Assembly (NCBI GenBank): GCA_918797485.1
Contig: CAKKNE010000005.1
Coordinates: forward strand, 4,402,001 to 4,466,000
Direction: 5' to 3'
Length of the DNA stretch: 64,000 nucleotides
Source: Pelagomonas calceolata
Taxonomy: Eukaryota > Sar > Pelagophyceae > Pelagomonadales > Pelagomonadaceae
The stretch's first letter is position 1. Every line of letters begins with the position of its first letter. A model generated the notes under the pieces. The model did not search any database, was not told the DNA's origin, and was given only the letters and a program-made list of their open reading frames with translations. Shown here one piece after another: positions 5,723 through 63,270 of this stretch. A program made the translations under genes and the position numbers.

Positions 5723-6027
5723 CGCTGGCCCGACCGTACACACAGCAACGAATGGGCAAGTTTGCCGCTGCTATCTCAGCTTCGAGAGCTTGCTAGTACC
5801 TTACAGCCGCTAGCTCGCACTCCGCCGAGCCCGCATAAATCACTGGCAATTGAGCCCCGAGCCTCCAGAGCTCGCGGGTTTCTACGTCGACAACCATTCC
5901 GGCTAGCCCGGCCGCCTATCGTTCGCACTGACACCAAACAGCTGAGGAGGACCGCTGTGCCAAACCGGGCCAATCCGAGACGCTTTGGCTGCAGGACTCT
6001 GCAGCACCCAAGCGCAGTGCCACGACC
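5723..6027. promoter_or_regulatory. Divergent intergenic region with GCTAG motif
   Basis: 305 bp between two divergent start codons. It holds one copy of the dispersed GCTAG motif at 5791-5814. No coding signal is seen. Confidence 0.6.
5791..5814 (+). repeat. GCTAG palindrome-ended motif, copy 1
   Basis: Reads GCTAGTACCTTACA then GCCGCTAGC, starting at 5792. It lies about 70 bp upstream of the Mini-RNase III start codon. Confidence 0.75.
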
Positions 6028-7110
6028 ATGCCGGCGCGCGTCGTCTGCGCCTTCCTCCTCTGGCGCGCGGCCGGGGCCTTCCGGCCGGGAAACCCGCCCC
6101 GGCCGCGGGCCGCGACGGCGCGCCGCGCCGAGGCCGCGCCCGGGCCGGCGCCCCCGCTCGGCGGCGGCCGCGGCGTGCCGCTCGGCCCGCCGGCGGCGGC
6201 CTCGGAGCCGGGCTACGAGCGCTGGATCAGCTCGCAGCTGCGCACGAACCGCATCCAGGACGCGACGCGGGGCTTGAAGGACAAGGTCGTCGACGCGCTG
6301 CGGCGGCCCGACGCCGAGGCCGAGCTCGCGACCATAGGAAGGGACCTGAACCTCCTCGTCACGAGCGGCAACACGGGCGTCACCGAGCGGGCGCGGTCGA
6401 CGCTGCTCACGCAGCAGCGGGCCTGGGAGGAGCTCCTGCCCGTGCGCGCCGCGTTCCCGCGGTACGCGCGCTTCGTCGCGGCCAAGGACGCCGGCCCGGC
6501 GGCGCGGCCGCCGGGCGCGCGCTTCGCCGCCGTCGCGCCCGTCGCCTTCGAGCGCGAGACGCGGCTCCTGGGCCCGTTCCTGAGCGCGGGCAGCGCCTGG
6601 GACGTGGCCGCCGAGGACGCGGCGACGCTCCGGCTGACGCCGCGCTTCGGCGGCGGCTGGTTCGTGCGGTGCCTCGGCGTGCCGCTGCCGCTGCCGCGCC
6701 TCGGCGCCGCGGCGCCGCGCGAGGTCGTCGTGCTCTACCTCGAGGGCGACGTGCTCGTGGCCGTCGACCGGCGCGGCGGCGGCGACGCGCTCCTCGTCTA
6801 CGCGGCGCCGCGGCTCCGCGGCTTCCGGAGCCCCTTTGGCTTGCGCGCGAAGCTCGCCGCGCTGCGCGTGCGGCGGCGCGAGCGCGCGCGGCGGAACGCG
6901 CGCGTCCGCGCCGCGAAGAAACCCAAGGGCGCGGCGCTCGTCGGCGACGTCGCCTGGCGCGACACCTCGAGCGCCCTCGACGTCGACGAGGCGCGCATGC
7001 AGCGGTTCCTCGACGCGGACCCGCGGCGCCGCGAGAACTTCTCGGTCCAGGACATGCTCGACGGCCGCCTCAGCGCCGAGGACCCGCTCGGGGACCTGAT
7101 CTCGGACTAA
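6028..7110 (+). CDS. PAP/fibrillin-like plastid protein
   Basis: The 360-residue protein starts with a hydrophobic stretch ending in AGAFRPGNPPRP, a good match to the signal-peptide/transit junction (A-F) used by secondary plastids. The body has a helical segment (residues 60-140) followed by a beta-rich region containing GGGWFVRCLG, then VVVLYLEGDVLVAV and a late ALLVYAA strand. That order resembles plastid lipid-associated proteins (PAP/fibrillin), where a lipocalin-like barrel ends in a 'YLD-DLRI' type strand. The C-terminal 90 residues are basic, then acidic. Assignment to the family is moderate; a plastid location is more secure. Confidence 0.6.
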   Translation: MPARVVCAFLLWRAAGAFRPGNPPRPRAATARRAEAAPGPAPPLGGGRGVPLGPPAAASEPGYERWISSQLRTNRIQDATRGLKDKVVDALRRPDAEAELATIGRDLNLLVTSGNTGVTERARSTLLTQQRAWEELLPVRAAFPRYARFVAAKDAGPAARPPGARFAAVAPVAFERETRLLGPFLSAGSAWDVAAEDAATLRLTPRFGGGWFVRCLGVPLPLPRLGAAAPREVVVLYLEGDVLVAVDRRGGGDALLVYAAPRLRGFRSPFGLRAKLAALRVRRRERARRNARVRAAKKPKGAALVGDVAWRDTSSALDVDEARMQRFLDADPRRRENFSVQDMLDGRLSAEDPLGDLISD

Positions 7111-7449
7111 TACATGGCGCGGTTTTTTTTCTTCTTGCTTTGCTTAGAGCTAGGTTGCCTAGCGACCCGGCCGACGGCTCCCTGCGTGACCGGACGCCTA
7201 GACGAACGCCCGCCCCGCCCCCGGCCCTCATACGCCGTCGCCCCGAGTGGTAGCTCGGAGGACCGGGGGCTAGAGCCCCCCGAGGACGCGCTCATCGTAG
7301 CCGGCACGCGCCTCGCCGACCTGCGCGCGGAGAGCACGTAGCGTGCCCAGGCATCCATCCCTAGCTTCTTTAGCCGTTGTTATAGGCATACAAACTTACA
7401 GGTACAGGCCCGCGCGGCGCTTGTGCCGCTAAAGCGGGGGGTCGGCGAG
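7111..7449. other. Intergenic region with a strong hairpin
   Basis: No gene is recognised. At 7267-7283 the sequence GGGGGCTAGAGCCCCC folds into a perfect short hairpin nested inside CTCGG/CCGAG, about 150 bp past the preceding stop codon. It could be a 3' UTR structure. Confidence 0.4.
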
Positions 7450-8232
7450 CTACTCGTCGTAGATCTCATCGACGGCGCCGTCGATGAGCATGGCCGCTGC
7501 CATCAGCGGCGACGACGCGAAGGTCTTCCACTGGTCGGAAGATCCCCGCGCGATAACATGCATGACGCTCGACGGCGTCGCGTCGGACGAGCGCCGCCGT
7601 GCGTACTTGCGCCGCCGTGCGTCCGTACCGTGATGCGGAACGTCCATAGAAGGCGTCGCCCTCGGCGCCTCGCGCGCTGTGCTCCAATCGATGATCGACG
7701 GCATCGCTGGAGGAGGATGTGCCTCCTTGCATCCCAAAATCGCGTCCAGTCTCGGCAATTGTTGCAGCGTCGGAGTTACGACAGCTGCGGGCCGCGTTGC
7801 GGGTGGCGTATTCATCTTTTTGCGCCGTCGCTCGGCTCGAGAAGCACGGCACGCGACCAGCGCCGAGGCTCGCGACAAGGCCTTCGAGCTTCGGCACGCT
7901 TCCGCTTTGGGCACACGTCTACGCCTCCTCCGGCGTCCCACGACCGCTTGTCGGCGCCCGGGACGGCCTCCCGCAGTGCTAGCAGGGACAGGTGGGGCTA
8001 CATGGTGTGCCCGCTTTTGGGCTAATTTGGTGCTGGACCGCTCTCCCCCTGTTCTAGACGTGTCTTGCGATTCGGAATGACGGCTAGCGCGTGATATTAT
8101 GTGATATAGCAGTCTCAGAGCGAGCCAAGAGGTGATGACCGCATCGCATGCGTGGGAGCTGTGCTCCGACACCATATTCAAGCTCAAACGTTGCAACAAA
8201 ACACGAAAACGCGCGGAAGTACCACATTTCAT
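7450..8232 (-). CDS. Possible hypothetical protein, unrecognised
   Basis: An open frame of 260 codons beginning with ATG. I recognise no domain. The N-terminal 130 residues are rich in Arg, Ala and Ser, as expected for chance frames in GC-rich DNA. The last ~120 residues (from MNTPPATRP) look more protein-like and end in DGAVDEIYDE. The 3' end of the frame contains a 24-bp perfect palindrome (7465-7488). It could equally be non-coding, so the call is weak. Confidence 0.25.
   Translation of the reverse strand: MKCGTSARFRVLLQRLSLNMVSEHSSHACDAVITSWLALRLLYHIISRASRHSESQDTSRTGGERSSTKLAQKRAHHVAPPVPASTAGGRPGRRQAVVGRRRRRRRVPKAEACRSSKALSRASALVACRASRAERRRKKMNTPPATRPAAVVTPTLQQLPRLDAILGCKEAHPPPAMPSIIDWSTAREAPRATPSMDVPHHGTDARRRKYARRRSSDATPSSVMHVIARGSSDQWKTFASSPLMAAAMLIDGAVDEIYDE
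7465..7488. repeat. 24-bp perfect palindrome
   Basis: CTCATCGACGGC is followed directly by its exact reverse complement GCCGTCGATGAG, with no spacer. Confidence 0.85.
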
Positions 8233-8337
8233 AATAGGAAGCGTGCGAGCAGCCGAAATCTATAACAGGCGCGCGTTGAAGCGGCAGACAAGCAAGGCGC
8301 TGCCGCTGCACCGGCAAGCCCCCGCGACCGCCCTTTG

Positions 8338-9000: not shown

Positions 9001-9060
9001 GGCCTGCCGCTCCCTCGACCCCCGCGGGCGCAGATCTGCCTAAGGCGGTTCCGATCGGTT

Positions 9061-9165
9061 TGCTAGTGGTCTTCCGCGGCGGGGGCGTGGGCGTGGCGCT
9101 GGAGGTGTGGACCGACGTGTTGATCGAAGCTATTTGCTAGTGTTCTTCCGCGGCGAGGGCGTGGG
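9061..9165 (+). repeat. Tandem pair of GCTAG half-motifs
   Basis: TTTGCTAGTGGTCTTCCGCG (9059 on) and TTTGCTAGTGTTCTTCCGCG (9132 on) are each followed by a GGGCGTGG-rich stretch, 73 bp apart. They share the left half of the dispersed motif but lack the closing CTAGC. Confidence 0.6.
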
Positions 9166-9473
9166 GGGCGCCTCGCGTTGGAGAGGTGTGCTCCGTGCGC
9201 GGCGCGAGGGGCTCCGCTGCAGCCCAAAGTTGGGCTACCCCACCAACTTTATGTAAGTGCACCGCGTGCCAAATTTGGTGGCTTGGGATGGCGTGTGGGC
9301 TGCGCTGGGTGGCATCTTACAAAAAGTGGGATGTGCGGTATACAAGCTCGTAAACCCTCGCTTGTGTAACAGCGAGGAACGTACTCCTCTTATGAGCCAA
9401 ATGGGCGGGAGAGGATGTCGTAAAACCCCAACCCATCGTTCTACTCGATACTTTCTCCCGGCAGGCTCGGAGA

Positions 9474-9497
9474 CCTAGCGCATGTAAGACACTAGGG
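9474..9497 (-). repeat. GCTAG palindrome-ended motif, copy 2
   Basis: CCTAGCGCATGTAAGACAC then TAGGG; inverted ends are CCTAG/CTAGG. It lies about 170 bp upstream of the glycosyltransferase start. Confidence 0.65.
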
Positions 9498-11124: not shown

Positions 11125-11143
11125 GGTGTTGTTGTTAACTTGA

Positions 11144-11205: not shown

Positions 11206-11207
11206 GC

Positions 11208-11230
11208 CTAGTGTCTTACGAGACGCTAGC
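11208..11230 (+). repeat. GCTAG palindrome-ended motif, copy 3
   Basis: CCTAGTGTCTTACGAGACG then CTAGC. It directly abuts the gene fragment at 11144-11205. Confidence 0.7.
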
Positions 11231-16149: not shown

Positions 16150-18538
16150 ATGCGGTTACTAAACTACGCACTCCTCCTCGCGCTGCGGGCCGGCGGCTTC
16201 ACGACAACAAACCGCGCGCCGCGCCCGCCCAAAGCGACGACGCGAGTGCAAGGCATCGCGAACTTCGGCACGTTCTTCGCGGAGAGTTGGCTGGGCGCCG
16301 GCGCGTGCTCGAGCCGCAAGTGCCCGCCGGCCAAGGACGTTTTTGATCACGTGCTCGTGGACGTGAATCAATATGTTCATACTTCTGCAAGAAGAGCGAC
16401 GTCGCAGGACGACGCCGTCAAGCGGCTGTACGCCGCGCTGGACGGCGTGCTGCGCGTCGCCCGCCCGCGGAAGAGTTTGGTGTTGGCGCTGGACGGCGCG
16501 GCGCCCGTCGCCAAAATCGTCACGCAGCGGAAAAGGAGAGAAGCCAACGTCGCGAAGACGGGCGTCGACCCACACGACGAGGTGCACCCTCTGTTGATCA
16601 CGCCGGGTACTGTATTTATGGACGTGATGTCTGATGCCCTAGAAAGGTACGCCGTCGAGCGCGTGTCGCGAAGGCAGACGCTGGAGAACGTGACGGTCTA
16701 CGCGTCGTGCGTGCGTCATGCTGGAGAAGGTGAGCTCAAGTTGGTGAGGTGGCTCCGATCTTCAGTTTGCGACGGCGGCACCGCCGCGGTCGTGTCCGGC
16801 GACGCGGACGTCGTCCTGCAGGCGTTGGCTGCCTTGGACTGCACGCGCGGGAAATCTTTGGAACCCTTCGTGTTGCGGCCTCTCGTGAAGCCGGACTATG
16901 GGGTCGTGAGCGCGTGGCGTCTGGCGAGAGAGCTGGCGAAGCGCTTTCCCGGAGCCGCGGCTGACCGGAGTAGAGATGATGTCTTGGTGTTACTGTTGCT
17001 GCAGGGCAACGACTACGTCCCGAAGCTACGAGCGGCGCCCTTCCACGCCTGTTTACGGGCCTACGAGCGGGCCGTGCTCGAGGCTTCGGGTGAAGACGAC
17101 GGCGCCCATTTCTTCCATTATACCCAAAACGAGCGGCGAGGCTGGAACGCGCCCTTCGCGGCGACGTTCTTCGAGTATTTACGAAAGTCGCGGCCGCGAA
17201 CGCCGACGCTCTACGACTCCTTCGACCTGCGGGACCTCCACGAGCGCAACCAGACCGAGGACATTTCTGAATTGACCTTTGACCTGAAGGAGGGCGCGGC
17301 GTCGCCCGACGAGTGGCGCTGCGAGGCCGTCTGTAAGGAGATCAAGGAGGCCGCGACGGGCCCGACGAAGCAGAAGGCAAAAAAAAAGGCCGCCGCGCAA
17401 GTCCTGGAAAGGCTCGGCGAGACCGAATGGCCGAACGGCGACCCCATCTGCGCGCTTGGACAAAGAGCGTCGCTCTCGTTCGATAAAGTCAGCGGGAAGC
17501 GCCAGTGGGTCTGCGCCGCGGCGCTGACGAAGGACTCTCAGCCGTTCAACGCGACAGCGGCCGCGGGCTCGAAGCGGGAAGCGCGAGCTCTGGCCGCCAA
17601 GCTGCTGCGGCGGCAGATCGCGCCATCTCCGCAAAGGACGACGACGAGCGACGCCGCTTCTTATATACAAGGCATCGCGTGGTGCCTCGACGCGTACGTC
17701 GAAGGTTATGTGGAGGACGGCTCGTACCGCTACCTGCCGCCGCACGCGCCGTCCTCGAAAGCGCTCAAAGCTTTATTTGAGGCTGGTGTGGATCTGTGTG
17801 GAAATCAAAATTTTACGGCGCGTTCGTGCTGAATCATCGCGTTGTCCTCCACGCCATCGACGCGACGCCTGCTCGATGGCGTGGCGATGCCGGTTCCTCG
17901 CCGCTCGACCGAGCCAGGTCGGCCGCGTCATTGCCGAGAAATGACTTCGTGAAGAATTGTCGGGCGCACCCGACGCACTGGTTGATTTCCACACAGGTGT
18001 GGATGACGAGGTAAGGGTGAAGACGGGCGCGCTCTCGGCGGACGTGCACTGCTGCGCCGTCATGCCGCGCGAGGCCTCTCCTTTATTGCCGGAGCACCTG
18101 CAGCCGCTGCACGCGGCCATCTGCGACGCGCGCGACCAGGGCCTCGACGCGGACGCGCTGCCCTTCCTCGAGGCCCTCGCGTCGACGCTCCACGCCGCGA
18201 ATTCTTTGCTTGGCGGCGGCGACGCGCGGACGTGGACGACGGTGCGGCGCGCGCGCGAGGACGAAATTACGCTCAGTCTGTCGCCGCCGATGCCGCGGCC
18301 GGGAGGCGGCGTCGCGGCGGGCGTCGCCGACGGCGGCGGCGCGCGCGTGGCCGTCGCGCACGACGTGGACCTCGAGCCGGCGCCCGCTCGCGCGTCCTCG
18401 CCCGACGCGGGCGCCACCGCGCGTGCTGCCGCGAATCGAGCTCTGCTGGATCGGCGCTTCTACACGGCCTTCAAGCCGCCTAGAAGGGTCTTCAAGAAGC
18501 GGAAGGCTCGGCCGGCGAACGCGACGCTCGCGACGTAA
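16150..18538 (+). CDS. XRN-family 5'-3' exonuclease with inserted dsRNA-binding domains
   Basis: Exons 16150-17785 and 17997-18538 join in frame (725 residues). The XRN nuclease core is complete: VLVDVNQYVH (~68), LALDGAAPVAKI, ITPGTVFMD, GEGELKLVRWLR (~192), VSGDADVV (~217) and GNDYVPKLR (~286). Two dsRNA-binding-like folds follow (residues ~387-424 with KQKAKKKAAAQVLERLGE, and ~435-491 with KREARALAAKLLRRQI). Then the XRN middle-domain motif SYIQGIAWCLDAYVEGYV appears, so the dsRBDs interrupt the XRN layout. The N-terminus (hydrophobic, then RAGGFTTTNRAP) looks like a secondary-plastid or secretory presequence. The C-terminus is basic. XRNs degrade 5'-monophosphate RNA; a plastid role would be unusual and is only inferred. 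Confidence 0.88.
17786..17996 (+). mobile_element. Introner-type intron A (reference copy)
   Basis: 211-bp intron: target duplication GTGTGGAT (17786-17793), then CTGTGTGGAAATCAA (17794 on) to TTGATTTCCACACAG (ending 17996), then GTGTGGAT again in the exon. It carries an internal hairpin, CCACGCCATCGA (17849) against TCGATGGCGTGG (17873). Removal restores EAG|VDDEVRV; unspliced RNA stops within the element. Confidence 0.95.
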
Positions 18539-21188: not shown

Positions 21189-21257
21189 TCGATGTTACGG
21201 TGCTAGGACTAGTGGGCGGAGCCCCTGGGGGGGAGACACCGCGCGTCGCCGATTCAT
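21189..21257 (+). repeat. 69-bp dispersed repeat, copy 1
   Basis: Begins TCGATGTTACGGTGCTAGG and ends CGCCGATTCAT, and contains CCCCTGGGGGGG. It matches 26576-26644 in inverted orientation with one difference. Confidence 0.9.
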
Positions 21258-21389
21258 CGGCGGCGGGCGCGGGCCGCTTCTTTCATAACAGCGTACCTCC
21301 TTCTAAGCTGAACCGCCTCGGCAAACCCCCCCGAACAATGTGCAACGTTCGCCCGTTCAATCAACTTGTCCAGCTGAGGCTAGCCAAAC

Positions 21390-21416
21390 GCTAGTGCCTT
21401 ACAGAGGCCTGCTAGC
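21390..21416 (+). repeat. GCTAG palindrome-ended motif, copy 4
   Basis: GCTAGTGCCTTACAGAGGCC then TGCTAGC; about 150 bp upstream of the methyltransferase start. Confidence 0.75.
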
Positions 21417-22299: not shown

Positions 22300-23346
22300 T
22301 CAGTTCGCGTCGCCCGCGTCCGCCTCGGCCTTGACCGGCGGCTCGGCGGGCAGGGGCGTGCCGTGGGCGATGGGCTCCGTCGGCGCCGTCGAGCAGACGA
22401 TCTGGCCCGTCGCCGGGTCGAACCAGAAGCTGCTGTTGGGGTCCGCCCCCAGCGGCGGCCCCGGCGCGGCGGCCAGCTGCGCGAGGACGCGCATCTGGTA
22501 GGCCTGGGGGTCCGTCGCGTAGAGCCGCTGCTGCTCCTCGGGCGTCATCGGCGGCGGCGCCGGCGCGGCCGGCGCCGCCGCCGTCCAGGGCGCCGCCGCG
22601 GCCGCCGCCGCGTTCGGGTCGTTGGGCATGGCCGCGAAGGGCAGGTAGTTGTAGTACGGCTGCTGGGCCGCGCCGGGCTGCGGCGGCACCATGTAGGGGT
22701 AGGGGTAGCCGCCCTGGCCGTAGTACGGCTGCTGCGGCGGCCCCGGCAGCGCGACGCCCTGCGCTAATAGCGCGGACGGCACGCCGGCCTCGTCGGACGA
22801 CGGCTGCTCGTAGGCCGGCGTTTCGACCTTTCGCCGCTTCTGCTTCTTGCGCTCGGGCTTCGGGTACTGGGCCTCGGCCGGGGCGGCCCCTTCGCCCTTC
22901 GCGGCCTTCTCCAGCCGATTCAGGCGCAGAAAGTGCTTCTGCGCGTGCGAGCGGACCTGCGGCTCCGACCGCGTCCGCATGCACTGCGAGATCTTCGTCC
23001 AGCTCCTCCCATACTTCGTCATCAAGCTCAAAAACTGCGTGTGCTCCTCCTCGGTCCAGCGCCCGTGTCTCTGGTGGGGGTTGTTCGCGTCCTTGCCCTT
23101 CGGCTTCGGGCGAGGCGGCGCGGCGGCCGCGAGGGCCGCGTTGTACTGGGCGACCTGGTAGGACTGGTAGGCCCGGGCGTTCGCGTCTCCGGGCGTCTGT
23201 TGTGTGGATTGACTGGCGTGCTGCGCGTAGTGCTGTTGCAACGACGCGGCGTAGGCGACCGGGAGGCTCGCGTAGCCGGGCGCCGGCGCCGCGGCCGGCT
23301 TCTCGGTCTCTTCCTCTGTGTCCTTCTCGGCGGCCTTCTTGGCCAT
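22300..23346 (-). CDS. SHAQKYF-class Myb-related transcription factor
   Basis: The 348-residue protein has one Myb repeat at residues ~95-150. It runs GRWTEEEHTQFLSLMTKYG, then RSWTKISQCMRTRSEPQVRS, then HAQKHFLRLNRLEKA. This is the SHAQKYF type of plants and stramenopiles (His replaces Tyr). These factors bind short DNA sites as single-repeat Mybs; members include circadian and stress regulators. The rest is Ala/Pro/Gln/Tyr-rich and disordered, as in activation regions. The ATG at 23346 was chosen because the longer frame starts without ATG. It is divergent from the VOC gene. Confidence 0.85.
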   Translation of the reverse strand: MAKKAAEKDTEEETEKPAAAPAPGYASLPVAYAASLQQHYAQHASQSTQQTPGDANARAYQSYQVAQYNAALAAAAPPRPKPKGKDANNPHQRHGRWTEEEHTQFLSLMTKYGRSWTKISQCMRTRSEPQVRSHAQKHFLRLNRLEKAAKGEGAAPAEAQYPKPERKKQKRRKVETPAYEQPSSDEAGVPSALLAQGVALPGPPQQPYYGQGGYPYPYMVPPQPGAAQQPYYNYLPFAAMPNDPNAAAAAAAPWTAAAPAAPAPPPMTPEEQQRLYATDPQAYQMRVLAQLAAAPGPPLGADPNSSFWFDPATGQIVCSTAPTEPIAHGTPLPAEPPVKAEADAGDAN

Positions 23347-25549: not shown

Positions 25550-26152
25550 GCCTCCAGTTTGAATTGCTCTGCCGACTGGCTGCTGCAGCGCCTCGATAGA
25601 TGGGGCAGCCCCTGGCGTTGCGCAGCGTGATAGGTGGGACCCCGCGAGCCAACGCAATGTAATGGGTCCCAAAGGTGTTCGAAACGATGCCTTGCTGCTC
25701 TCTCGCGTGGAGGAGCTGGGCTTTAAAGCAGGGATTTGGTGCTGGCAGGAGCTGTGCCCCGCACGATGCCTGGCTGGCATTACAGCGGCCTGCAGGCATC
25801 CGAGTTTCTTATAAGATGTTGTAATGTCAATTAGACCGCTCGCAGCTAGCGTGAGTGGACATACTAGAGACATCAACGAGGTGTGTCCTGACTGTGACCT
25901 GTCCGGCTTAATCCGCACTTGTGCAGCGTCTGGAGCTGGGAGGCGCCGTCCGACGATAAATATAGTCGCCGCAACGCCGCGCTGTGACTTTTCGCTTCCC
26001 GCTCATGTCTATCACTCTCTCTGCAGCGAGGCTGAAACTCCTCCGTGCGCGAGCGCAGGAGAGAGCGACGCGTCATTGCGTAGACGTCGTAGACGTCGCC
26101 CGGCATGAGTGGACCACGCACCGCCCGCGCAGGCTCCAAAAAGACCAAAAAA
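25550..26152. promoter_or_regulatory. Divergent intergenic region
   Basis: About 600 bp without a recognised gene. It contains a 9-bp tandem (GTAGACGTC twice) at 26080-26097. Confidence 0.45.
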
Positions 26153-29000: not shown

Positions 29001-29395
29001 GGTTCCAGGACCGAAGCGTCGGCGTCCAACGTGTTAGGGTCGCGTTCGACGTGCTAGGGCGCACCCTCACTAGTAAGCCAGGCAGAGATTCCACCGACCC
29101 GTCGACGGCGTCGAGGGCTCCGGCGTCGGCCCCGTCAGCTGAGGGAGCAGCCCTCACCCGTTCGGACGCTCTGAGGCTGCCCCGGCGCCTGGCTGCCCGG
29201 AGCTTGACAACGCCGTGTTTGCTAGTGCCTTACATGCCGCTAGCTAATCTTGCCCATCACGGCCGCAACTGGCTCTCTTGCAGGCGTTAGGATTTGGTAA
29301 TCGCTGCAGAGCATCTTCGGCAACCCCCCGAGCATGCGCTTCATCGGTGTGGCATTATCATAGCAGCTGGCCGACACTGCACGCTGCACACTGCT
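29001..29395. promoter_or_regulatory. Divergent intergenic region
   Basis: 395 bp between divergent starts, with a GCTAG motif at 29221-29243. No coding signal. Confidence 0.55.
29221..29243 (+). repeat. GCTAG palindrome-ended motif, copy 5
   Basis: GCTAGTGCCTTACATGCCG then CTAGC; 153 bp upstream of the hydroxylase-like gene. Confidence 0.8.
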
Positions 29396-33906: not shown

Positions 33907-34480
33907 CGTGTCCGTTCTGCGTCCTTTGCCTTTTTCTGCGCGTAAAGGCGCTCGTTCTTGCAGCCGGCTTCGCGAGGTGTGGCTAGCTAACCAACTGTGT
34001 CTTGGACGAGGACCCGTCGCGCGGGGCAGTGCGTGCGTGGCGGTGCGGGTGTCCCGGTCGCTGCTCAGCAGGGCTGCCCCATCGTTGCTCGTTTTTCAAG
34101 CCGCAGTTGTACGAGTCGTTGGCTGGGCTGCCCTGCGCCGGACATCGACCTCGCGGCCTGCTCTGGAGCCGTTCTGGAGTGCTCGGGAGGGGTACGATGC
34201 CTATGTGAAGCTGTTACGACGTGTCTTTTTGTTTGCTAGTGTCTTTCCAGTTCGCTAGCCTGTCTTTAACATTTGCTCGTGGCGCTTGTCGCGCGCTCTG
34301 TGGAGCGAAGCGCTCGTAAATTAGGCGCTGGGAGAAGCGGTGTTGCTGCCGTCTCGGCGCCGCGCCGTTGCACGCGTCCAGAAACGCCACACGGCTAACA
34401 GGGTGCCACCCGAAAAATATCGATTTTGGCGCGGTCAGTACGACCGCAGCGGCTCTCGGCAGAGCGGAACTGCTACAGAC
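33907..34480. promoter_or_regulatory. Divergent intergenic region
   Basis: 574 bp between divergent starts. One GCTAG motif at 34235-34259; no coding signal. Confidence 0.5.
34235..34259 (+). repeat. GCTAG palindrome-ended motif, copy 6
   Basis: GCTAGTGTCTTTCCAGTTCG then CTAGC; 222 bp upstream of the HVA22-like start. Confidence 0.75.
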
Positions 34481-35431
34481 ATGCTCTCGGTGGTGGTGGC
34501 GGCCTGGGGCGGCTGGCTCAGCTTCCAAGCGCTTAAAGCGCGCAAAGCGCGCGACGACGTCGAGGCCGAGGACGCGGCCGTGCGCAAGGTCCTGCGCTTC
34601 TGGGCGTGCTACGCGTTCCTGCTGGCCTACGACGCCTACGGCTGCTTGACCTGGGTCCCGGGCCACAGCCTCGCGCGCGCGGCCGCCGTCGGGTTCGTCT
34701 TCTTGCTCCCGCCGGCCTGGGGCGCCACTGAAGTCGCGTTCTTCGTCGGCCTCCTCCCGACAGCTCATGCGAGCTGGGCCGTCGCGCACGGTGCCGTGTT
34801 CTCGGTGCTGGCAGTCGCGCACGACCTGGCGGCGGAGTGCGCGCGGCCCGGACTGTTTTCGCCGAAGGGCCGCGCGCCAAAAACGCCTCTGAAAACGCCA
34901 CCGGCGCGCGACGCGCGGCGGCGCATCGCTGAGCTCCTGCGCGACTCGGACGACAGCGACGACGAAGAGCCGGCCTCGTGCGTGGCCGAGCCGGGAACCC
35001 CACGCGTCCGGCCGACGCCGCGCGACCCGTGCGAGTCTCTGGATTCTGTCGCGTCCGCGCCGTCGTCGCCCGGACTGCTGCGCGGCTGGTCGCGCGAGGT
35101 CTCGTCGGACGACGACTTCGACGCGGACGCCGCGACGCGTGCGGCGAAGAAGCTGAGGGTCGCGGAGCTGCGCGCGGCGCTGGAAGCCGCGGGAGCGGAT
35201 TCGAAGGGCCTGAAGCCTGCGCTCGTCGAGCGGCTCGTGGGCGTCCGGCGACGAGCCGCGTCGGGTCCGACGCTGTCGCCCGTCGCCTTTAGCGAGACGG
35301 ACGATGATCCTCCGCCTCGGGCGTCGCCCGCGAAGCGGGTGTGGGGCCTGCGACGGCGGTTCTCGCCGCGGAAACTGCGGACTCGGCGGCCCCGCGCTGC
35401 AGCGCTCTCCCCCGGGGAACCGTCCCAGTGA
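34481..35431 (+). CDS. HVA22/REEP (TB2/DP1)-like membrane protein with SAP motif
   Basis: From the ATG at 34481 the protein has 316 residues. The N-terminal ~110 residues have a TB2/DP1/HVA22-like hairpin pattern: VLRFWACYAFLLAYDAYG, then WVPGHSLARAAAVGFVFLLP and WGATEVAFFVGLLP. In that family these wedge into and curve ER membranes. A Ser/Asp-rich linker follows. Residues ~220-260 match a SAP motif: KKLRVAELRAALEAAGADSK then GLKPALVERLVG. SAP motifs usually bind DNA, which is unexpected on a reticulon-like protein. The tail is Arg-rich. The family assignment of the membrane part is moderate, the SAP part good. Confidence 0.65.
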   Translation: MLSVVVAAWGGWLSFQALKARKARDDVEAEDAAVRKVLRFWACYAFLLAYDAYGCLTWVPGHSLARAAAVGFVFLLPPAWGATEVAFFVGLLPTAHASWAVAHGAVFSVLAVAHDLAAECARPGLFSPKGRAPKTPLKTPPARDARRRIAELLRDSDDSDDEEPASCVAEPGTPRVRPTPRDPCESLDSVASAPSSPGLLRGWSREVSSDDDFDADAATRAAKKLRVAELRAALEAAGADSKGLKPALVERLVGVRRRAASGPTLSPVAFSETDDDPPPRASPAKRVWGLRRRFSPRKLRTRRPRAAALSPGEPSQ

Positions 35432-35618
35432 TGAGTATGTTTGTTGAAAGTATATTTCTCCTCCCGGGAACCGTCGTCGGGGGGTCGCGTTCGGGTGTAG
35501 CGGCCCAGGAAGATACCCTCATGCCTCCCGGAACACGCCGGCAGAGCGGGAATTAAGCTCTGAACTTCACTATCGGGGGTCAGTCGGAGAGGTCTGTTTT
35601 CAAAAGCCATCCGCCTAG

Positions 35619-35668
35619 GCCTGTATACATGCATATGTATATACATACATATATATATTATATATACG
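35619..35668. repeat. AT-rich microsatellite
   Basis: Alternating TATA/CATA units around TATACATGCATATGTATATA and ATATATATTATATATAC. Confidence 0.8.
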
Positions 35669-36002
35669 GATTCCTAGTGTGTCGATACGCTAGATCACCA
35701 GGTCTTGCGGCTCGCCAAAATACACCAGCGATTGACAGTGCCTTCTACCGTCCAAATGATACATCATATCAACTCCAGCCCAGTTTTCATACACATTCGA
35801 CGGAACCGGAGCCGACGGCCCGCGCTCGGAAGGCGGGAAAAGAATTCTACTAGACAACTCCCGAGTTTATGTTCGTTTCCTTCCATTTGTTAGGGGTAGA
35901 GTCCATCTAACCCGCATCAGCGACCACTGAGCTAGTTTAGATGCTCCGTTAGAGCCGCGCGAAACGGCGACTTTGAGACCCCGCGTTTACGTGAAAACAA
36001 GC

Positions 36003-36382
36003 AGAAGACCCAGACCCGCGAGTATCAGCGACGCCACCATCCAGATGGACCATAACGCCGTCGTTCTATTCACAATCGACCGACTTGCCCGTTCTCCGCG
36101 GACGACGGTGCGTACGCGGGGCACTGGATTGGCCCCAGACCGGTGGTTTATAAAATAAATTCGCGTTTGAGGCGCTTCAGTTGTAGGACGGGCCATCCGA
36201 ACCGCCTGAGCGGTCACACATTTGATTTACTGTTCCGAAGGCTCCCGGCGGCTCGTCTCTCTCGCGGCCCCAGGATCTCGTTTAAATGGGCACCAGGCCC
36301 AGACCTGCGACCATCAGCCCGTGTACCATCACCATGGACCATGACGCGACCATTTGCTCCATGACCGACCGACTTGCGCGAG
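36003..36382 (-). repeat. Diverged direct duplication with membrane-like coding look
   Basis: About 90 bp at 36003-36092 recur near 36290-36382, sharing blocks such as TGGACCAT.ACGC and GACCGACTTGC. On the - strand both copies can be read as a hydrophobic segment, one ending MVASLILAGLGLLLVFT, the other MVHGLMVAGLGLVP. Confidence 0.55.
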
Positions 36383-36996
36383 GTCCAGATGCAGATGTTC
36401 ACGTCCCGAGCGTGGGCAGCCAAAAGTACCCTTCTTATAATGTAGATGTCATATACTTGTAATTGACTATCGCTGGGGTAGTATGGGGTCCAACGAGACC
36501 GCTACGGCGACTACTGGGGGCCCTCGGGTAATTGACGTTTTTGACGGGAACGGGGCGCCATCGGGTCCAAATTAGTTACTTTTTTCGGGGGCAGATCGAC
36601 TCCTGGAGGTCTCTCGGGGTAGGTCTGGTTGTGGGTAAGCGCCTGTACCGCATACGCCGGCGCTGGGGCCCACCGAGGGCTTCTGGAAGCCATTGCCAAG
36701 TAATTCATGCACAAGTGGGTTGGATGGTTGAGAGAATTGGCCGAAATATGCTGGAAGCGGCCACGCATGCGCTGTAGTCGCCTAGCCATGTATACTTCGA
36801 CCCTAAGCGACCCCGGGGAGACCTCAGGACCACGGATTGACAGGATTCCACTGGCGTGGCCGCCTTGTGGCGTCCTCAGCCGGGCCGCCGCGAATTAAAT
36901 ATATTCCATTTTTGGCCCCCAGGAAGTGTCTCATTGATCTCTTTGGACCATTAGCGAACGGAACGGTACTCAAACAGCTGCATGTCGTTTGCTTTT

Positions 36997-37020
36997 GCTA
37001 GTATCTTACATGCCGCTAGC
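36997..37020 (+). repeat. GCTAG palindrome-ended motif, copy 7
   Basis: GCTAGTATCTTACATGCCG then CTAGC; 208 bp upstream of the ankyrin gene start. Confidence 0.8.
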
Positions 37021-38563: not shown

Positions 38564-38903
38564 TGTTATTTTTGTTGCTCGGGGTTTCGATTGATTTTCT
38601 GAGGAAATACCGTCGGGGAGCGGCTACGACGGCACCCATGCTGTAGGAAATCGCGCTAGCGGCCTGTAAGACACTAGCAAGCAGGACGCTGCACATCCGA
38701 CAGCAGTTAATCGTCGCTAGTTGCAATACCAATACCCTCAGTCTGTCAACAGCGTCGAAATTATACACAGAGTCGTAAGCTGTCGCAAAAACGCATCTAT
38801 CTATGCACCGAGAGGCAGGAAAACATGAAAGCCGATAGGAACATGTATAAGCTCCGCTGCGTCAACGAGCCTCTTCCTCTCCGCAGCGGTTACCACCGTG
38901 TGC
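38564..38903. promoter_or_regulatory. Intergenic region
   Basis: 340 bp, no gene; GCTAG motif at 38655-38678. Confidence 0.5.
38655..38678 (-). repeat. GCTAG palindrome-ended motif, copy 8
   Basis: GCTAGCGGCCTGTAAGACAC then TAGC, followed by AAGC; 226 bp upstream of the next start. Confidence 0.82.
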
Positions 38904-42881: not shown

Positions 42882-42902
42882 CTAGTATCTCTGTGGCTAG
42901 CT
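42882..42902 (+). repeat. GCTAG palindrome-ended motif, copy 9 (short)
   Basis: GCTAGTATCTCTGTGGCTAG then C; spacer shortened. 85 bp upstream of the DHAR-like start. Confidence 0.6.
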
Positions 42903-45117: not shown

Positions 45118-45140
45118 GCTAGCGCCAGTAAGACACTAGC
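45118..45140 (-). repeat. GCTAG palindrome-ended motif, copy 10
   Basis: GCTAGCGCCAGTAAGACACT then AGC, followed by AAGC; 162 bp upstream of the membrane-protein gene at 44956. Confidence 0.8.
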
Positions 45141-45718: not shown

Positions 45719-46142
45719 CGCCGGTCTGACGCGGTTTCGCGGTAGCGGCGGCGTTAACGTAAAGTAATGAGACTTTGGTGGCGCCCGGTGGGTCCAAACT
45801 TTGCCGATGGGCCGCGTGGACTGAGTCGCGTGGCTCGATATCTCACTAATCCCGTGCTAGCTAGCGGCCTGTAAGACACTAGGCAGCAAGCCAGACAACT
45901 CCCTGGACGTTTCATGCGGGTCTTTATCGCCGCTGATTCGCTCGACGACGTGCCGCCCATGATTCGGGCCTAGATGTACCGGGACGGGCCGCCGCGAACG
46001 TGAAGGAGTCAGAAGGACGTCCATGCAGCCATGGCCAGGACCTTGCTCTTCCATGCTCTATCTGCTGGGGTGTTCGGTGCCGAGACAGTCGCGAAGGTGA
46101 AGGAAGAAGGAAGGGAGACAGTACCAAGACGAGCGGCCGAAC
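45719..46142. other. Intergenic region
   Basis: About 420 bp, no gene; GCTAG motif at 45860-45883. No N-terminal sterol-reductase sequence is seen in any frame. Confidence 0.5.
45860..45883 (-). repeat. GCTAG palindrome-ended motif, copy 11
   Basis: GCTAGCGGCCTGTAAGACAC then TAGG. Confidence 0.8.
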
Positions 46143-51762: not shown

Positions 51763-53544
51763 ATGCCGGCCCGCCGCGACGAGGATCGAAGTCCAGCGAC
51801 GACGCCGCGCAACTCCGTCGAGACGCCGCCGCCGCCGCGCTCCCGAGCTCTCTCAATGCCGGCGACGCCGCGGTCCGCGTCCGCGCCGGCCATCCCTCCG
51901 GCGACGCCAACCGGGAAAGTGAAAAAGGCAAGGCAGAAGCTCCGCAACCTCGTAAGAAAGCACCTCGATCGAATAAGAGCGAAGACGTCCGGGCGGTCGC
52001 CCCGTAACTCACGCGATTCGGACAGTGACGAAGACCTCCCCAAAGTGCGGAAGTACGAAAGATTGGAGCGAGCGGTGCGGAAGCAGCTCGCCAAGGGCCG
52101 GGCGGCGCGGCGGAAGCTGTATGAGTTGAGACACACCATAGAACGAAGAAAAAATCGGAAACGCGCGCGGGCGGCGGAAAAAGCTGCAGCAAGGGCGTCA
52201 TTGTTAGCCGGCTACGCGTCGGAAGGAGATCGGTTATCTCCACCGGGCACGCCGCCCTTCAAGGCGCGGCAGCGCGAGTTCGCGACGGCGTCGCCGCTGC
52301 ACCGACGGAGCGGCTCCGTGTCTTCTGTGGATGTTTCGTCGGACGACTCGTCCGACGACGAAGTAATGGACCCTTTACAACAAGCGCTACAAGGTGTTGA
52401 TAGAGCGGCGATGGCGTCTCATTTATCATTGGTGACGTTAGGGCTGGTGGGCTACGATCTCATACAGAGCGAGGACTATTCTTTCAGAAGACTCGCGACG
52501 CTCGCTATTGCAATAGCGTGCTGGCTCTGCCACGCCGGCGAGGTGAAGAAGGCGGCGCTCAAGGCGGCGACGGCTGTATTAGATGTGCCGGAGACGCCCC
52601 TACCTACAAGGCGAGAGCCGCCCCGGCGCATGCGCACGATGCTCGAGGACGTCCCGCGGTGGACCGTGCCGCGGGAAGAAACGGAGCCGACGCCGAACAC
52701 GTGGCGCCACAGTCCGGCAGATACGTTTCAATTAAGAGGAGGATCGTATCTGCGCGATCGGGTGAAAATAAAATCTAGCAAGGCGACGTACGAGGTCGTG
52801 GACGTGCGAGTTCTGAGAAGCCCGGAGGGCGCCATGCCCGACTTGTTGACGCATCATCCGTCGTTACGAGGCGGTGAGACGAGAATGTTGAATGGCCTGC
52901 CCGAAACGCTGGCGCTGAACATCGCCGCGCCGTGCGAGGCGCCGTCGATCAGCGGCTGGCGGCCGGCGTCGCCGTGCTGGATTTTGTTGTTGGTCCTGAA
53001 AATAGCCGACCATGCTAGAGTAATAGCGACGGACGAGCCCGACGTGAGCAAATGGCCTCCCGGATTAAGGCTGTGTCGGAGGTGGCTGCGCGACGCGCCA
53101 AACGACCCATACTTGTGTGCTCGGCTGAAGGGCGTGTTCCAGGTCCGCGCGTTGGACGGCGAGCAGCTGCCCCGCGTCTTCGCGAAGTGGTCGGGCAAGC
53201 CGGTCCTCATGGCGGCGGCCGGCGCTCTCTCGAGAAGACATGGTTTGGCGAAGTTCTCGGGCGGAAGTGGTTACGTCGAGGTCCATTTGGACATCGGCGA
53301 GTCCTTCAGCTACATGGGCCGGGGAGCGGTCTACCTCATGATGTCCAAACTCTCGACGCTCGACGCGGACGTCTGCTTCACGCTTGAAGGTAGGGCGGAC
53401 GACGAATTACCGGAGGTCGTCTTCGGCGCGGCGTCGTTCACGGCGCTGGACCTCGAGAAGAAGTTCAAGCAACTACGCCAGCGCGCTCTAGACTCGCTCC
53501 CCTCCGGCGAATTTGCGGGCCTTTTCGATGATGATATAAGTTGA
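51763..53544 (+). CDS. EDR2_C/DUF1336 domain protein
   Basis: 593 residues from the ATG at 51763. The N-terminal ~200 residues are basic and disordered, with a coiled region (KVRKYERLERAVRKQLAKG). A hydrophobic stretch is near ~230-260 (TLGLVGYDLIQ; LAIAIACWLCHAG). The C-terminal domain (~325-575) matches EDR2_C: FQLRGGSYLRDRVKIKSSKA, LALNIAAPCE, ARLKGVFQVR, KFSGGSGYVEVHLDIGESF and DDELPEVVFGAASF. Plant EDR2 relatives act in lipid-linked signalling at membranes. A lipid-transfer or lipid-binding role is plausible here. The stop codon TGA is shared with a duplicated piece of the next gene. Confidence 0.82.
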   Translation: MPARRDEDRSPATTPRNSVETPPPPRSRALSMPATPRSASAPAIPPATPTGKVKKARQKLRNLVRKHLDRIRAKTSGRSPRNSRDSDSDEDLPKVRKYERLERAVRKQLAKGRAARRKLYELRHTIERRKNRKRARAAEKAAARASLLAGYASEGDRLSPPGTPPFKARQREFATASPLHRRSGSVSSVDVSSDDSSDDEVMDPLQQALQGVDRAAMASHLSLVTLGLVGYDLIQSEDYSFRRLATLAIAIACWLCHAGEVKKAALKAATAVLDVPETPLPTRREPPRRMRTMLEDVPRWTVPREETEPTPNTWRHSPADTFQLRGGSYLRDRVKIKSSKATYEVVDVRVLRSPEGAMPDLLTHHPSLRGGETRMLNGLPETLALNIAAPCEAPSISGWRPASPCWILLLVLKIADHARVIATDEPDVSKWPPGLRLCRRWLRDAPNDPYLCARLKGVFQVRALDGEQLPRVFAKWSGKPVLMAAAGALSRRHGLAKFSGGSGYVEVHLDIGESFSYMGRGAVYLMMSKLSTLDADVCFTLEGRADDELPEVVFGAASFTALDLEKKFKQLRQRALDSLPSGEFAGLFDDDIS

Positions 53545-55567: not shown

Positions 55568-55593
55568 GCTAGCGCGACTTGTAACACACTAGC
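55568..55593 (-). repeat. GCTAG palindrome-ended motif, copy 12
   Basis: GCTAGCGCGACTTGTAACAC then ACTAGC; 182 bp upstream of the start at 55386. Confidence 0.75.
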
Positions 55594-56345: not shown

Positions 56346-56896
56346 CGCTTTCACCTTTTGCTTGGCTGCCGACGCTTTGCTTTTTAGTGGCTGCCTGCCA
56401 GTGTGTGAGGGCAGAGGTTGTACGCGTCGACAGCGCTGGCTTTGCTTTGTCCACTGGTTGCTCGGCTGGAGCCGATGTCTTTGAGCGTCCTTATGGCAAT
56501 GCGCACGATCTATGTGCTCAGCCCAGCGCGCTGCCAAAGCCGAGGAAAGCACAAAGTGCCGGGTTTTTGCGAGATTTGGGTTTTCGAGCTAGAGTCTCTT
56601 TCACGCGTCTTTCCCAGTGTCGATTGGCCCAGAGGAGCCCCCGAGGCCGCTCTTGCCTTTTTTGCCTGCTAGCGGCGGTAAGACACTAGGACAGAATACA
56701 CGCCTGCAAAAAAAGTCGGCTGAACCGCCGTTGCGCTGTTCACCGACGAGCGAGGTTAAGTAACACATTTCAGAGGGTTCAGCACCGTCATTGTACCTCA
56801 ACTGCAGCGCCGCGGAGCCTACGGAGCCGTCGCTAGCGCTGTCCGAGTCGAAGTGTTCTTGGTGAGGGGACACGTAAGAAACGCAAAACGAGCACA
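56346..56896. promoter_or_regulatory. Divergent intergenic region
   Basis: 551 bp between divergent starts; GCTAG motif at 56668-56690. Confidence 0.5.
56668..56690 (-). repeat. GCTAG palindrome-ended motif, copy 13
   Basis: GCTAGCGGCGGTAAGACACT then AGG; 207 bp upstream of the phosphoglycerate mutase start. Confidence 0.78.
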
Positions 56897-58805: not shown

Positions 58806-58807
58806 TC

Positions 58808-61800: not shown

Positions 61801-62987
61801 GCGTGCAACGCCATGAGTTCGAGCCGCGCGTCGTTTCTTTCCCTTTCTAGTTTCTGTCGCACCAACCGCTCGGTCGTCGCGTTCTCGGGCGCCTGGCGGT
61901 TCATGCGTCGGACCCGGTCTCTCTCGATCTGCTCCTCGCGCTTCCGGCGCTCCTCGCAAATTTCGTCGTACGCTTTCTTCACTTTATTGAATCTCGCCCG
62001 CGCGACGTCCCGCTCGGCCTTGACGTGTTCGAGGTCGCGATCTAACCTTGCGGTAGCTCGCTCGGGCACGGCGTCGTCCTCGCCGCGCGCCGTTAAGGCC
62101 TCCGCGACGGCGCCGCGAACGGCCGCCACCACCACATCGTCGTTCTGCGCCGTTCTAGCGGCCTTCTCGGCATCTTCATGCGTCCAGGCATCTCTAAATC
62201 TCGCTTCAATCGCGTCGGCGGCGGTGTGCGCTCTAGCTGCGACGCGGCGCCAGGCGTCGACCTCGCGCGACGCGTTGACTTCTGGAGCCGTTCTCGGTCT
62301 TATGGGTGACGCGGACCTTCTACGCCTTCCACGCGACGACGACGGCGAGCGCGGAGAACGAGCGCCGCCCGGTCCCAGTCTCGCTCTTCTACGAGCCCTT
62401 TTCCTCCCACTGGTATTCCTTCTCGCGTTATACTTCTCGATGACCACCACCACGCCCTCGGCGTGCAGTCTCCTCTCGCGAGCTTCCTCGGAGGCCCCCG
62501 GGCCGTGGTGCCTTCTCTGACCCGATCGCGCTGCGGCCTTCCTCGCCAACCCCAGGACTTGCTCGCCACGAGCATTGACCGCCCCGACATCCGCACCACC
62601 CCTAAGACAGGCTTCGACCGTGTCCTTGTGGGCATCATTTCTAACCAACAGATGTAACAGTGTATCTCCTTCGACGACCATGCACTGGTCTCCAAAAACG
62701 GCCCCGCCGAACCTTCTCACATCCCCACAGAGCCGCGCGATGGTGCCCGCCGTGTCCTCCGGCTTGCCGCCCCGCATCTTCTTGTCGGCCATCTGCTGCG
62801 CACACAGGTAGCGGTTGCAGTTGACCATCGACGCGCGCGCGTCCTCGTGGAACGCGTCCGCGGACAATTCTACCGTGCGCACGGCGGCGTCCTCGAAGGG
62901 CGTGCCCGTGGACCGCATCTTCCGCTTCGTCGGCGTCGGCGTGAAGGCCGTTTTTTGCTTGCCCGGTTCTACGACTAGGACGGGCAT
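58808..62987 (-). CDS. Ankyrin / coiled-coil / RelA-SpoT-like / LRR protein, two exons
   Basis: Exons 62987-61702 and 61523-58808 join in frame (1333 residues); the coiled coil continues as LKWREW|YKQKGDSLERF across the junction. Order: an ankyrin-like unit (GDTLLHLLVRNDAHKDTVEA, ~100-135), a basic coiled coil (~310-500), and a RelA/SpoT-like nucleotidyltransferase fold at ~790-920. That fold has LLAPVKSLGRAFAKVHEKYG, GLTDLIRGTLQCDSL, VKNRFDP, GDGYRDVLCNVEIN and AEVQINLAS. Leucine-rich repeats follow (~1000-1140: LKRLDLSSNALTGYV), then a Trp/Cys-rich end. RelA/SpoT folds make or break (p)ppGpp-type alarmones or modify RNA; which activity is present here is unknown. The start is the ATG at 62987; the frame opens 47 codons earlier without ATG. 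Confidence 0.82.
61524..61701 (-). mobile_element. Intron F with introner core hairpin in inverted order
   Basis: 178 bp, GTGCGTGT...CAACGCAG on the - strand. It contains TCGATGGCGTGG (61604-61615, + strand) and CCACGCCATCGA (61654-61665). These are the same two arms as in introns A and B but in opposite order, 38 bp apart. End repeats are not clear. Confidence 0.7.
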
Positions 62988-63246
62988 ACTTGTTGCTGTT
63001 TGTTGCTGCTTCGTTCGCTCTTGTTTGCGGTGGCACCGGCTGCCCCTCGGCGCCGCGCGGGATACGCTGTCGTTTGGTACCTTCCCAGTGCTTCGGCAGT
63101 GGGGACTGCGGCTTTTACGCGCCTTCACGCTCGCTTGGCGTTATGAGAGCACCCCACTAGGCGTGGCCGCCTCTCCGGGCGGCTCGCGAGTCCTGCTACC
63201 CTCTTGAAGCGGTGGCGAGGGGTGCGGCGAGAGATGCGTCGTGCTT

Positions 63247-63270
63247 GCTAGTGTCTTACAGGCCGCTAGC
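63247..63270 (+). repeat. GCTAG palindrome-ended motif, copy 14
   Basis: GCTAGTGTCTTACAGGCCG then CTAGC; this copy matches the consensus exactly. Confidence 0.85.

What the first reader, a model, noticed from the sequence alone, without database searches (positions are those of the whole stretch)
5791..63270. Dispersed 24-bp palindrome-ended motif upstream of genes
GCTAGTGTCTTACA, a few variable bases, then CGCTAGC, or its reverse, occurs at least 14 times in 64 kb (5791, 9474, 11208, 21390, 29221, 34235, 36997, 38655, 42882, 45118, 45860, 55568, 56668, 63247). None lies inside a gene; 13 lie upstream of a start, often by 70-330 bp, including several divergent promoters. Both orientations occur. 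The core TGTCTTAC/GTAAGACA is kept together with the GCTAG ends, so selection or recent copying must act. It could be a promoter element with a dedicated binding protein, a tiny mobile repeat, or an RNA hairpin in 5' UTRs. I know no named element like it.
Basis: seen in the sequence. Interest (0 to 1): 0.8.

Follow-up and report, generated by a model that had tools for sequence, protein, structure and literature searches.

The report
Promoter-centre DNA motif in Pelagomonas
A 23-letter DNA sign sits, nearly always once, in the middle of the control region at about half of the promoters examined in what is almost certainly the ocean alga Pelagomonas calceolata, and is most likely the docking site of an unidentified protein that keeps promoters open.

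Summary
The motif, TTGCTAGTGTCTTACA, a short spacer, CGCTAGC, is real and genome-wide: CTAGTGTCTTACN{1,8}CGCTAG occurs 2,050 times against 0 for the reversed control, CTAGTGN{4,16}CGCTAG 4,133 against 58. The genome matches published Pelagomonas calceolata RCC100 in size, contigs and GC. In 254 contiguous kb 46 sites were found: none in predicted coding sequence (77% of the DNA), none in 40 convergent gaps, all in gaps facing a predicted gene 5' side; 44 of 89 such gaps have one, only two a second (8-9 expected). In 27 of 51 divergent gaps the site is near the midpoint. CTAG letters are hardly ever changed (2 of 328), the others often (46 of 451). Missing compensation and mixed orientation speak against an RNA hairpin; mostly unshared flanks against a recent mobile repeat. 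Best reading: binding site of an unidentified general promoter factor, comparable to yeast Reb1/Abf1 or human ZNF143. Against: a variant form is partly carried by an interspersed repeat (window ~35537-37020), whose right edge coincides with the motif, so spread by mobile DNA is not excluded. Protein binding, nucleosomes and expression could not be tested.

The parts
5792..5814 (+). motif GCTAGTACCTTACA-GC-CGCTAGC, divergent gap
9474..9496 (-). motif, same-strand gap, pointing against the gene (GNT-I-like)
11207..11230 (+). motif, same-strand gap
21390..21416 (+). motif with 6-bp spacer, 159 bp before a predicted start (rRNA methylase-like gene)
25845..25868 (-). weak motif-like site in a divergent gap (score 11.9; may be chance)
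29221..29244 (+). motif, divergent gap
34235..34259 (+). motif, divergent gap
35673..35694 (+). variant motif CTAGTGTGTCGATACGCTAG inside an interspersed repeat
35537..37020 (+). interspersed repeat; right edge of its alignments coincides with the motif at 36997-37020; left edge approximate
36997..37020 (+). motif, 207 bp before a predicted start
38655..38678 (-). motif, same-strand gap, pointing against the gene
45118..45140 (-). motif, same-strand gap
45860..45883 (-). motif, same-strand gap, upstream of an ERG4/ERG24-like gene
55568..55593 (-). motif, same-strand gap
56668..56690 (-). motif, divergent gap (Ras-like / histidine phosphatase-like genes)
63247..63270 (+). motif, divergent gap

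Best explanation
The motif is a promoter element, present nearly always once at about half of the promoters in the 254 kb examined. It is most likely the binding site of an unidentified, sequence-specific general promoter factor. Two outer half-sites (CTAGTG and CGCTAG, facing each other with 12-14 bp between the CTAGs in most copies) and an inner TCTTACA box are read together. The bound factor marks the middle of the promoter and probably keeps nucleosomes away, so that RNA polymerase II can start on one or both sides. Shown here: abundance, placement, one per promoter, letter-specific constraint; polarity at most mild. Inferred: the protein, nucleosome clearing, the effect on transcription.
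For: Genome-wide excess: 2,050 v 0, 4,133 v 58. 0 of 46 in predicted coding sequence, 0 in 40 convergent gaps. In 27 of 51 divergent gaps (some ends being predicted acceptors), relative position mean 0.51, sd 0.14, against 0.29 for uniform; 0 of 20,000 simulations as central. 54 of 104 genes with a predicted ATG start and at least 120 bp upstream carry it within 700 bp, median 194 bp from the start. One per promoter: 44 of 89 5' gaps have a site and only 2 have two; P at most 0.0004 in 5,000 simulations. Letter-specific constraint: CTAG letters changed in 2 of 328, others in 46 of 451, p = 1e-9, in a search that weighted all letters alike, with 0 control hits. On contig C1 the motif lies outside predicted exons in 16 of 16 distinct loci. 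Of the ten most over-represented 8-letter words of intergenic DNA, the first and five others come from the motif. Genes beside it in the window are varied.
Against: No transcription start, chromatin or expression data could be used. Gene models come from my own predictor on 254 kb (under 1% of the genome); many exons begin at predicted splice acceptors. Information content, about 34-36 bits, is far above the 11-14 bits needed to find about 5,000 sites, odd for a single factor. The spacer length varies. Carriers and non-carriers do not differ in coding score (p = 0.17), so no expression link was seen. An interspersed repeat carries the variant motif and abuts the main one, and a few other sites share short stretches near the motif. 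The named strand can fold as an RNA hairpin.
Confidence: 0.68

Rival explanations
1. A very short mobile repeat, or the terminus of a larger mobile element, that inserts into open promoter DNA; its placement reflects insertion preference, not function.
For: Window ~35537-37020 is an interspersed repeat (40 scored matches, itself included, of 179 candidates for its left part; the others 79-90% identical) with a variant motif near its left end and the motif at its right end. Two further copies (C5:4296072-4297405 and L046) also end at a motif. At least 10 of the 18 exact variant copies in the list lie in repeat copies. Short shared stretches lie near other sites: 129 bp at 99%, 27-51 bp away (254-kb position 171389 and L002), and 50 bp at 84%, 8-15 bp away (52399 and 144327). 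Aureococcus introners are reported to insert between nucleosomes (PMC9860276, passages).
Against: Of 62 motif sites compared only 3 share flanks that run up to the motif; otherwise letters are specific to about 2 bp before and 1 bp after it. Change is concentrated in particular letters while CTAG stays fixed. One per promoter where random placement gives 8-9 gaps with two or more. I recognised no target duplication by eye, though a fixed CTAG duplication could hide.
Confidence: 0.15
2. An RNA hairpin in the 5' leader of mRNAs (CUAGUG...CGCUAG with a G-U wobble).
For: On the named strand the arms pair with a U-G wobble in 41 of 46 sites; predicted RNA energy is better on that strand in 5 of 5 sites folded, and below shuffles by more than 2 sd in 3 of those 5. 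Distance to the start is tighter for the gene the motif points at (MAD 22 v 70).
Against: Outer pair broken in 17 of 46 with 2 compensated, and next-to-loop pair broken in 7 of 46. 8 of 25 one-sided sites point against the gene (hand tally). As single-stranded DNA 5 of 6 folds lie within 2 sd of shuffles (the sixth, the variant, z -2.2).
Confidence: 0.09
3. A directional core promoter element fixed relative to the transcription start (initiator- or PSE-like), not an orientation-free factor site.
For: 14 of 18 one-sided sites in the 254 kb point at the gene (hand tally); sense distances lie at 113-221 bp in 25 of 30.
Against: The tighter spread is significant (p about 0.003) only after two sense distances over 400 bp are dropped; with them p = 0.43. 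On C1 only 3 of 7 one-sided loci point at the gene (hand tally). No core within 3 mismatches upstream of the U2 or U6 gene in the fetched 3-kb loci.
Confidence: 0.08

Closest known systems
Human ZNF143 promoter motif (PMC11118474, start of abstract in the listing and passages)
   Same: Long degenerate motif (29 bases), thousands of sites (4,682 peaks). The passages report enrichment of a group of initiation-type factor motifs in bidirectional promoters; that ZNF143's is among them I infer.
   Different: Sequence unrelated by eye; no ZNF143-like protein was sought here; binding here is not shown.
Yeast general regulatory factor sites, Reb1/Abf1/Cbf1 (PMC2897762, passages)
   Same: Promoter motifs tied to nucleosome-free regions; the repertoire changes between lineages.
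   Different: Those motifs are shorter (recalled); nucleosome depletion is measured there and unknown here.
Oomycete INR+FPR core promoter block (PMC3599244, abstract)
   Same: Stramenopile promoter motif of 16-19 nt; no TATA box detected.
   Different: That block lies near the transcription start and the combined form is in about 13% of genes; this one lies about 190 bp before the ATG, at about half of promoters examined, in both orientations.
S. pombe Sap1 sites used by retrotransposon Tf1 (PMC5741268, passages)
   Same: A 21-bp motif (5,000 best matches used); mobile DNA inserts at fixed offsets beside it at promoters, recalling the repeat that abuts the motif here.
   Different: The repeat here has no ORF of 100 aa or more and it is not shown that it targets the motif.
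Bacterial REP elements (recalled, not searched)
   Same: Short imperfect palindromes, intergenic, many copies, both orientations.
   Different: No RAYT-like gene was sought; one per promoter and promoter midpoint are not REP traits as I recall them.

Membership tests
General promoter factor site (GRF-like) | Sequence motif concentrated in promoters and absent from coding DNA | tested here: met
   0 of 46 in predicted coding sequence; 46 of 46 in gaps facing a predicted 5' side, 41 with an ATG start and 5 with an acceptor only
General promoter factor site (GRF-like) | Works in either orientation, often between divergent genes | tested here: inconclusive
   occurrence in both orientations is shown: 27 of 51 divergent gaps near midpoint; 14 for and 4 against in one-sided gaps, 3 and 4 on C1. 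That it works both ways is not shown
General promoter factor site (GRF-like) | Bound by a dedicated protein and depleted of nucleosomes | not testable with these tools
   no chromatin or binding data at hand
Transposable element copy | Shared sequence with homologous copies beyond the motif | tested here: not met
   3 of 62 sites share flanks running up to the motif; a few more share short stretches nearby. Met for the variant inside the repeat
Transposable element copy | Empty sites or target-site duplications | not tested
   needs other strains or the duplicated chromosome ends, which were not fetched
RNA hairpin element | Compensatory changes in the stem | tested here: not met
   outer pair: 29 of 46 paired, about what independence gives; 2 CG against 10 CC. 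CTAG pairs hardly vary and say nothing
RNA hairpin element | Fixed orientation to the gene | tested here: not met
   8 of 25 one-sided sites point against the gene (hand tally); rests on my gene models
snRNA-type promoter element (PSE-like) | Present upstream of snRNA genes | tested here: not met
   no core within 3 mismatches upstream of U2 or U6 in the fetched loci; one partial core lies downstream of U2
Pelagophyte introner | About 200-bp intron-like element with inverted ends and splice sites | tested here: not met
   introner-like ends GTGTGGAAATC / GATTTCCACAC are different sequences; of the 14 GTGGAAATC outside coding 1 shares a gap with the motif

The most novel reading that the evidence does not exclude
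The promoter sign was spread by mobile DNA: a family of interspersed repeats carrying the motif at or near both ends, or inserting exactly beside it, seeded ready-made promoter centres through the genome, and host selection then kept one per promoter, which would explain why the site holds more than twice the information needed to find it.
Probability: 0.13. Interest if true: 0.82.

Novelty: new member of a known kind. Interest (0 to 1): 0.56.

Why it matters
Pelagomonas calceolata is an ocean phytoplankter with a chromosome-scale genome (PMC9481584, start of abstract in the listing and passages), but in the listings I saw no promoter element is described for it or for other pelagophyte algae. 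A motif at about half of the promoters examined gives a way to mark promoters, to look for the factor that reads it, to build reporter constructs, and to ask how general promoter factors change between eukaryotic lineages. The excess of information, and the repeat that carries a form of the motif, make an origin of promoter elements from mobile DNA testable.

Tried and rejected
Considered and set aside. (1) Introner ends: different sequence. (2) snRNA-type PSE: not upstream of U2 or U6. (3) Viral origin: 0 exact matches in viral contigs with two patterns. Rfam: no match in the window at gathering scores. (4) Cross-species evidence: the one hit in bacterial and archaeal genomes is a chimeric contig of a spirochaete MAG. 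ORFs on it have bacterial relatives, and a stretch of about 1.6 kb is 90-96% identical to G000 contig C1. There the CTAG-to-CTAG motif is identical while a 3-bp indel adjoins it and substitutions lie nearby; one locus only, so weak. (5) Link to expression by coding score: none seen, p = 0.17. (6) Literature: the listings of searches show no description of the motif; one search lists 20 of 856 papers, and neither 13-letter string occurs in those 20. In the main text of PMC9481584 the word motif does not occur; in PMC12054182 promoter and motif do not occur; PMC5917014 passages concern a viral promoter motif. Supplements were not readable.

A left edge at the variant motif in 8 of the 40 repeat matches is probably an alignment stop at the TA-rich tract beside it, so I did not use it.

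Rows dropped and slips: flank statistics use 41 of 46 sites (score over 15), and its flank table is offset by one base between strands, so I quote flank letters. The Levene test was run with and without two sense distances over 400 bp, the Ansari test only without. In one search exons of 120 bp or less were not printed; L044 repeats L008. labels the promoter share 23% but the script used 17%.
Full report
WHERE IT IS. The window is G000:C5:4402001-4466000 of a 32.4-Mb genome in 8 contigs; GC 65% in the window. The published Pelagomonas calceolata RCC100 assembly has six nuclear contigs of 32.4 Mb plus one plastid and one mitochondrial contig, mean nuclear GC 63%, 16,667 genes and 0.45 introns per gene (PMC9481584, passages).

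THE OBSERVATION. All 14 places carry the paired CTAG ends. Exact TGTCTTAC occurs 7 times in the window, 0.42 expected by shuffling. Genome-wide, GTGTCTTACA occurs 821 + 843 times against 8 + 5 for the reversed control; CTAGTGTCTTAC with up to 2 mismatches 2,569 + 2,484 against 418 + 382; CTAGTGTCTTACN{1,8}CGCTAG 1,031 + 1,019 against 0 + 0; CTAGTGN{4,16}CGCTAG 2,086 + 2,047 against 33 + 25. The symmetric version CTAGTGN{4,16}CACTAG is at only 153 places (control 15), so the asymmetry TG/CG is a real property. A second form, CTAGTGTGTCN{2,8}CGCTAG, has 149 + 136 against 1 + 1.

THE MOTIF. I fetched 190 kb beside the window and worked on 254 contiguous kb. A position-weight model with a variable spacer gives 46 sites; three dinucleotide shuffles give 0, 0 and 1, the reversed sequence 1. 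Five of the 46 score under 13 and may be chance. Spacing between the arms is sharply peaked: for CTAG[TC][GA]N{n}[CT][GA]CTAG both strands together give 44 at n = 10, 20 at 9, 12 at 8, and at most 4 at any other n from 0 to 39 (each place counts on both strands). Outside GCTAG...CTAGC, letters are specific for about 2 bp before (TT) and 1 bp after (T). CTAG itself is rarer than base composition predicts (513 seen, 840 expected).

WHERE IT SITS. I wrote a simple coding predictor trained on the long ORFs. Of 46 sites, 0 overlap predicted coding sequence, which covers 77% of the DNA; 0 are in the 40 convergent gaps (4.6 kb in all, 21 of them of at least 60 bp). All 46 are in gaps facing a gene 5' side, 41 with a predicted ATG start and 5 with a predicted acceptor only. 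44 of 89 such gaps have a site, two have two; random placement gives 8-9 gaps with two or more, P at most 0.0004. In divergent gaps the site is near the midpoint: 27 of 51 gaps, relative position 0.51, sd 0.14; 0 of 20,000 uniform simulations were as central. Of 104 genes with a predicted ATG start and at least 120 bp upstream, 54 carry it within 700 bp, median 194 bp from the ATG, middle half 146-221. On C1, in 16 of 16 distinct loci (15 fetched by core or variant pattern, one, L030, by similarity) the central motif is outside predicted exons. Genes beside model-recovered sites in the window are varied: GNT-I-like, rRNA methylase-like, ERG4/ERG24-like, Ras-like, histidine phosphatase-like, one with EF hands and a ubiquitin-conjugating domain; a kinase gene and a GST-like gene flank the degenerate site at 42882.

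POLARITY. In one-sided gaps 14 of 18 sites point at the gene (hand tally); on C1 3 of 7 (hand tally). Distances to the gene it points at are tighter than to the other (MAD 22 v 70), but the Levene test reaches p about 0.003 only without two distances over 400 bp; with them p = 0.43. I count polarity as unproven.

FUNCTION OR DECAYING COPIES. A search that treats all 19 fixed letters alike (up to 4 mismatches) gives 41 sites and 0 in the reversed control. The 8 CTAG letters are changed in 2 of 328 (both in one site), the other 11 in 46 of 451 (p = 1e-9). At up to 5 mismatches it gives 60 against 18, at up to 6 168 against 128, so few clear decayed copies exist. Neutral decay of a repeat would not spare the CTAGs. 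The one-per-promoter pattern also speaks for function.

RNA OR DNA. The arms pair on the named strand with a U-G wobble in 41 of 46; RNA energies are better on that strand in 5 of 5 sites, with z below -2 in 3 of the 5. But the outermost pair is lost in 17 of 46 with only two compensated, the inner pair is lost in 7 of 46, and 8 of 25 one-sided sites point against the gene. I rate a transcribed hairpin as unlikely, not excluded.

EXCESS INFORMATION. Net of spacer entropy the sites hold about 34-36 bits, while 4,100-6,000 sites in this genome need about 13.4-13.9 bits, or about 11 if only 17% of the DNA counts. The estimate leans high because sites were picked by similarity. PMC2680408 (passages) discusses over-specified motifs such as LexA and the suggestion that binding of other proteins explains the excess at T7 promoters. 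Here a composite site read by two proteins, or an origin by copying, would fit.

THE REPEAT. Window 35400-36000 matched 40 scored places (itself included) of 179 candidates in the genome, the others 79-90% identical over up to about 460 bp of the query. Window ~35704-37020 aligns at 84% with C5:4296072-4297405, and parts align with L051 and L046. The variant motif at 35673-35694 lies in it; of the 18 exact CTAGTGTGTCGATACGCTAG places among the 100 listed, at least 10 fall in repeat copies listed, so that form is at least largely carried by the repeat. In the three copies whose right end is held (window, C5:4296072-4297405, L046) the alignment ends at the last letter or so of a motif, which lies 207, 131 and about 207 bp before a predicted start. 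The motif's own likeness extends such alignments, so the true edge may lie a few bases earlier. Either the repeat carries the motif at its right end or it inserts beside existing motifs, as Tf1 does at -9 and +19 of the 21-bp Sap1 motif (PMC5741268, passages). No ORF of 100 aa or more lies between 35646 and 37228. I only observed it. Other shared stretches near motifs: 129 bp at 99% near window 21390 and in L002, and 50 bp at 84% after the sites at 254-kb positions 52399 and 144327.

OUTSIDE EVIDENCE. Viral contigs: 0. Bacterial and archaeal genomes: one hit, a chimeric contig with about 1.6 kb of Pelagomonas-like DNA, in which the motif is unchanged next to an indel. No other pelagophyte genome was at hand.

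WHAT IT WORKS LIKE. The nearest functional parallels are ZNF143 (29-base motif, 4,682 peaks; PMC11118474, passages) and the yeast general regulatory factors, whose repertoire turns over between species (PMC2897762, passages). The oomycete INR+FPR block (PMC3599244, abstract) is the nearest stramenopile motif in print that I saw and differs in place and frequency. Membership in the class of general promoter factor sites is met for location, inconclusive for orientation and untestable here for protein and chromatin.

VERDICT. A real, strong, genome-wide promoter element, not found described in the listings seen, of a known kind.

Noticed in passing
window 35537-37020; C5:4296072-4297405; L046; L051: Interspersed repeat without a long ORF, probably mobile DNA, in tens of copies or more, carrying the variant motif and abutting the main one.
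   Followed up: partly
U2 gene C3:2456627-2456820 (L050): Inside the U2 gene near its 3' end the letters CCTAGTGCCTTGCACAACCGCCTAG resemble the motif; possibly chance from a CTAG-stemmed hairpin.
   Followed up: no
L050 and L052 upstream of U2 and U6; many gaps in the 254 kb: GGGCAGCC / GGCTGCCC recurs upstream of both U2 and U6 and is over-represented in intergenic DNA: a second candidate promoter motif.
   Followed up: partly
window 17798-17996 (between two predicted exons of the XRN-like gene); other places: An intron-like stretch with inverted ends GTGGAAATC / GATTTCCACACAG, with CGATGGCGT inside such stretches: looks like the known introner elements.
   Followed up: partly
window 21209-21337 and L002 1342-1470: A 129-bp GC-rich stretch 99% identical at two places, with shorter matches elsewhere: a recent short repeat.
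   Followed up: partly
254-kb positions about 52431-52478 and 144365-144414 (C5:4304431 and C5:4396365 onward): After two motif sites a shared stretch AAAAAAGC.AGCCTAGATTGACAGTCT.GCC, itself with near-palindromic CTAG-like ends.
   Followed up: no
C1:2.72-3.00 Mb and elsewhere: CTAGTGGCGCAAAACTCACTAG recurs several times in a small region: another repeat with CTAG ends.
   Followed up: no
L009 (contig CAJWEZ010000013.1): A spirochaete MAG contig contains about 1.6 kb of Pelagomonas-like DNA between bacterial genes: likely a chimeric assembly.
   Followed up: yes
window 22300-23346: Gene with a Myb-like DNA-binding domain; no link to the motif shown.
   Followed up: no
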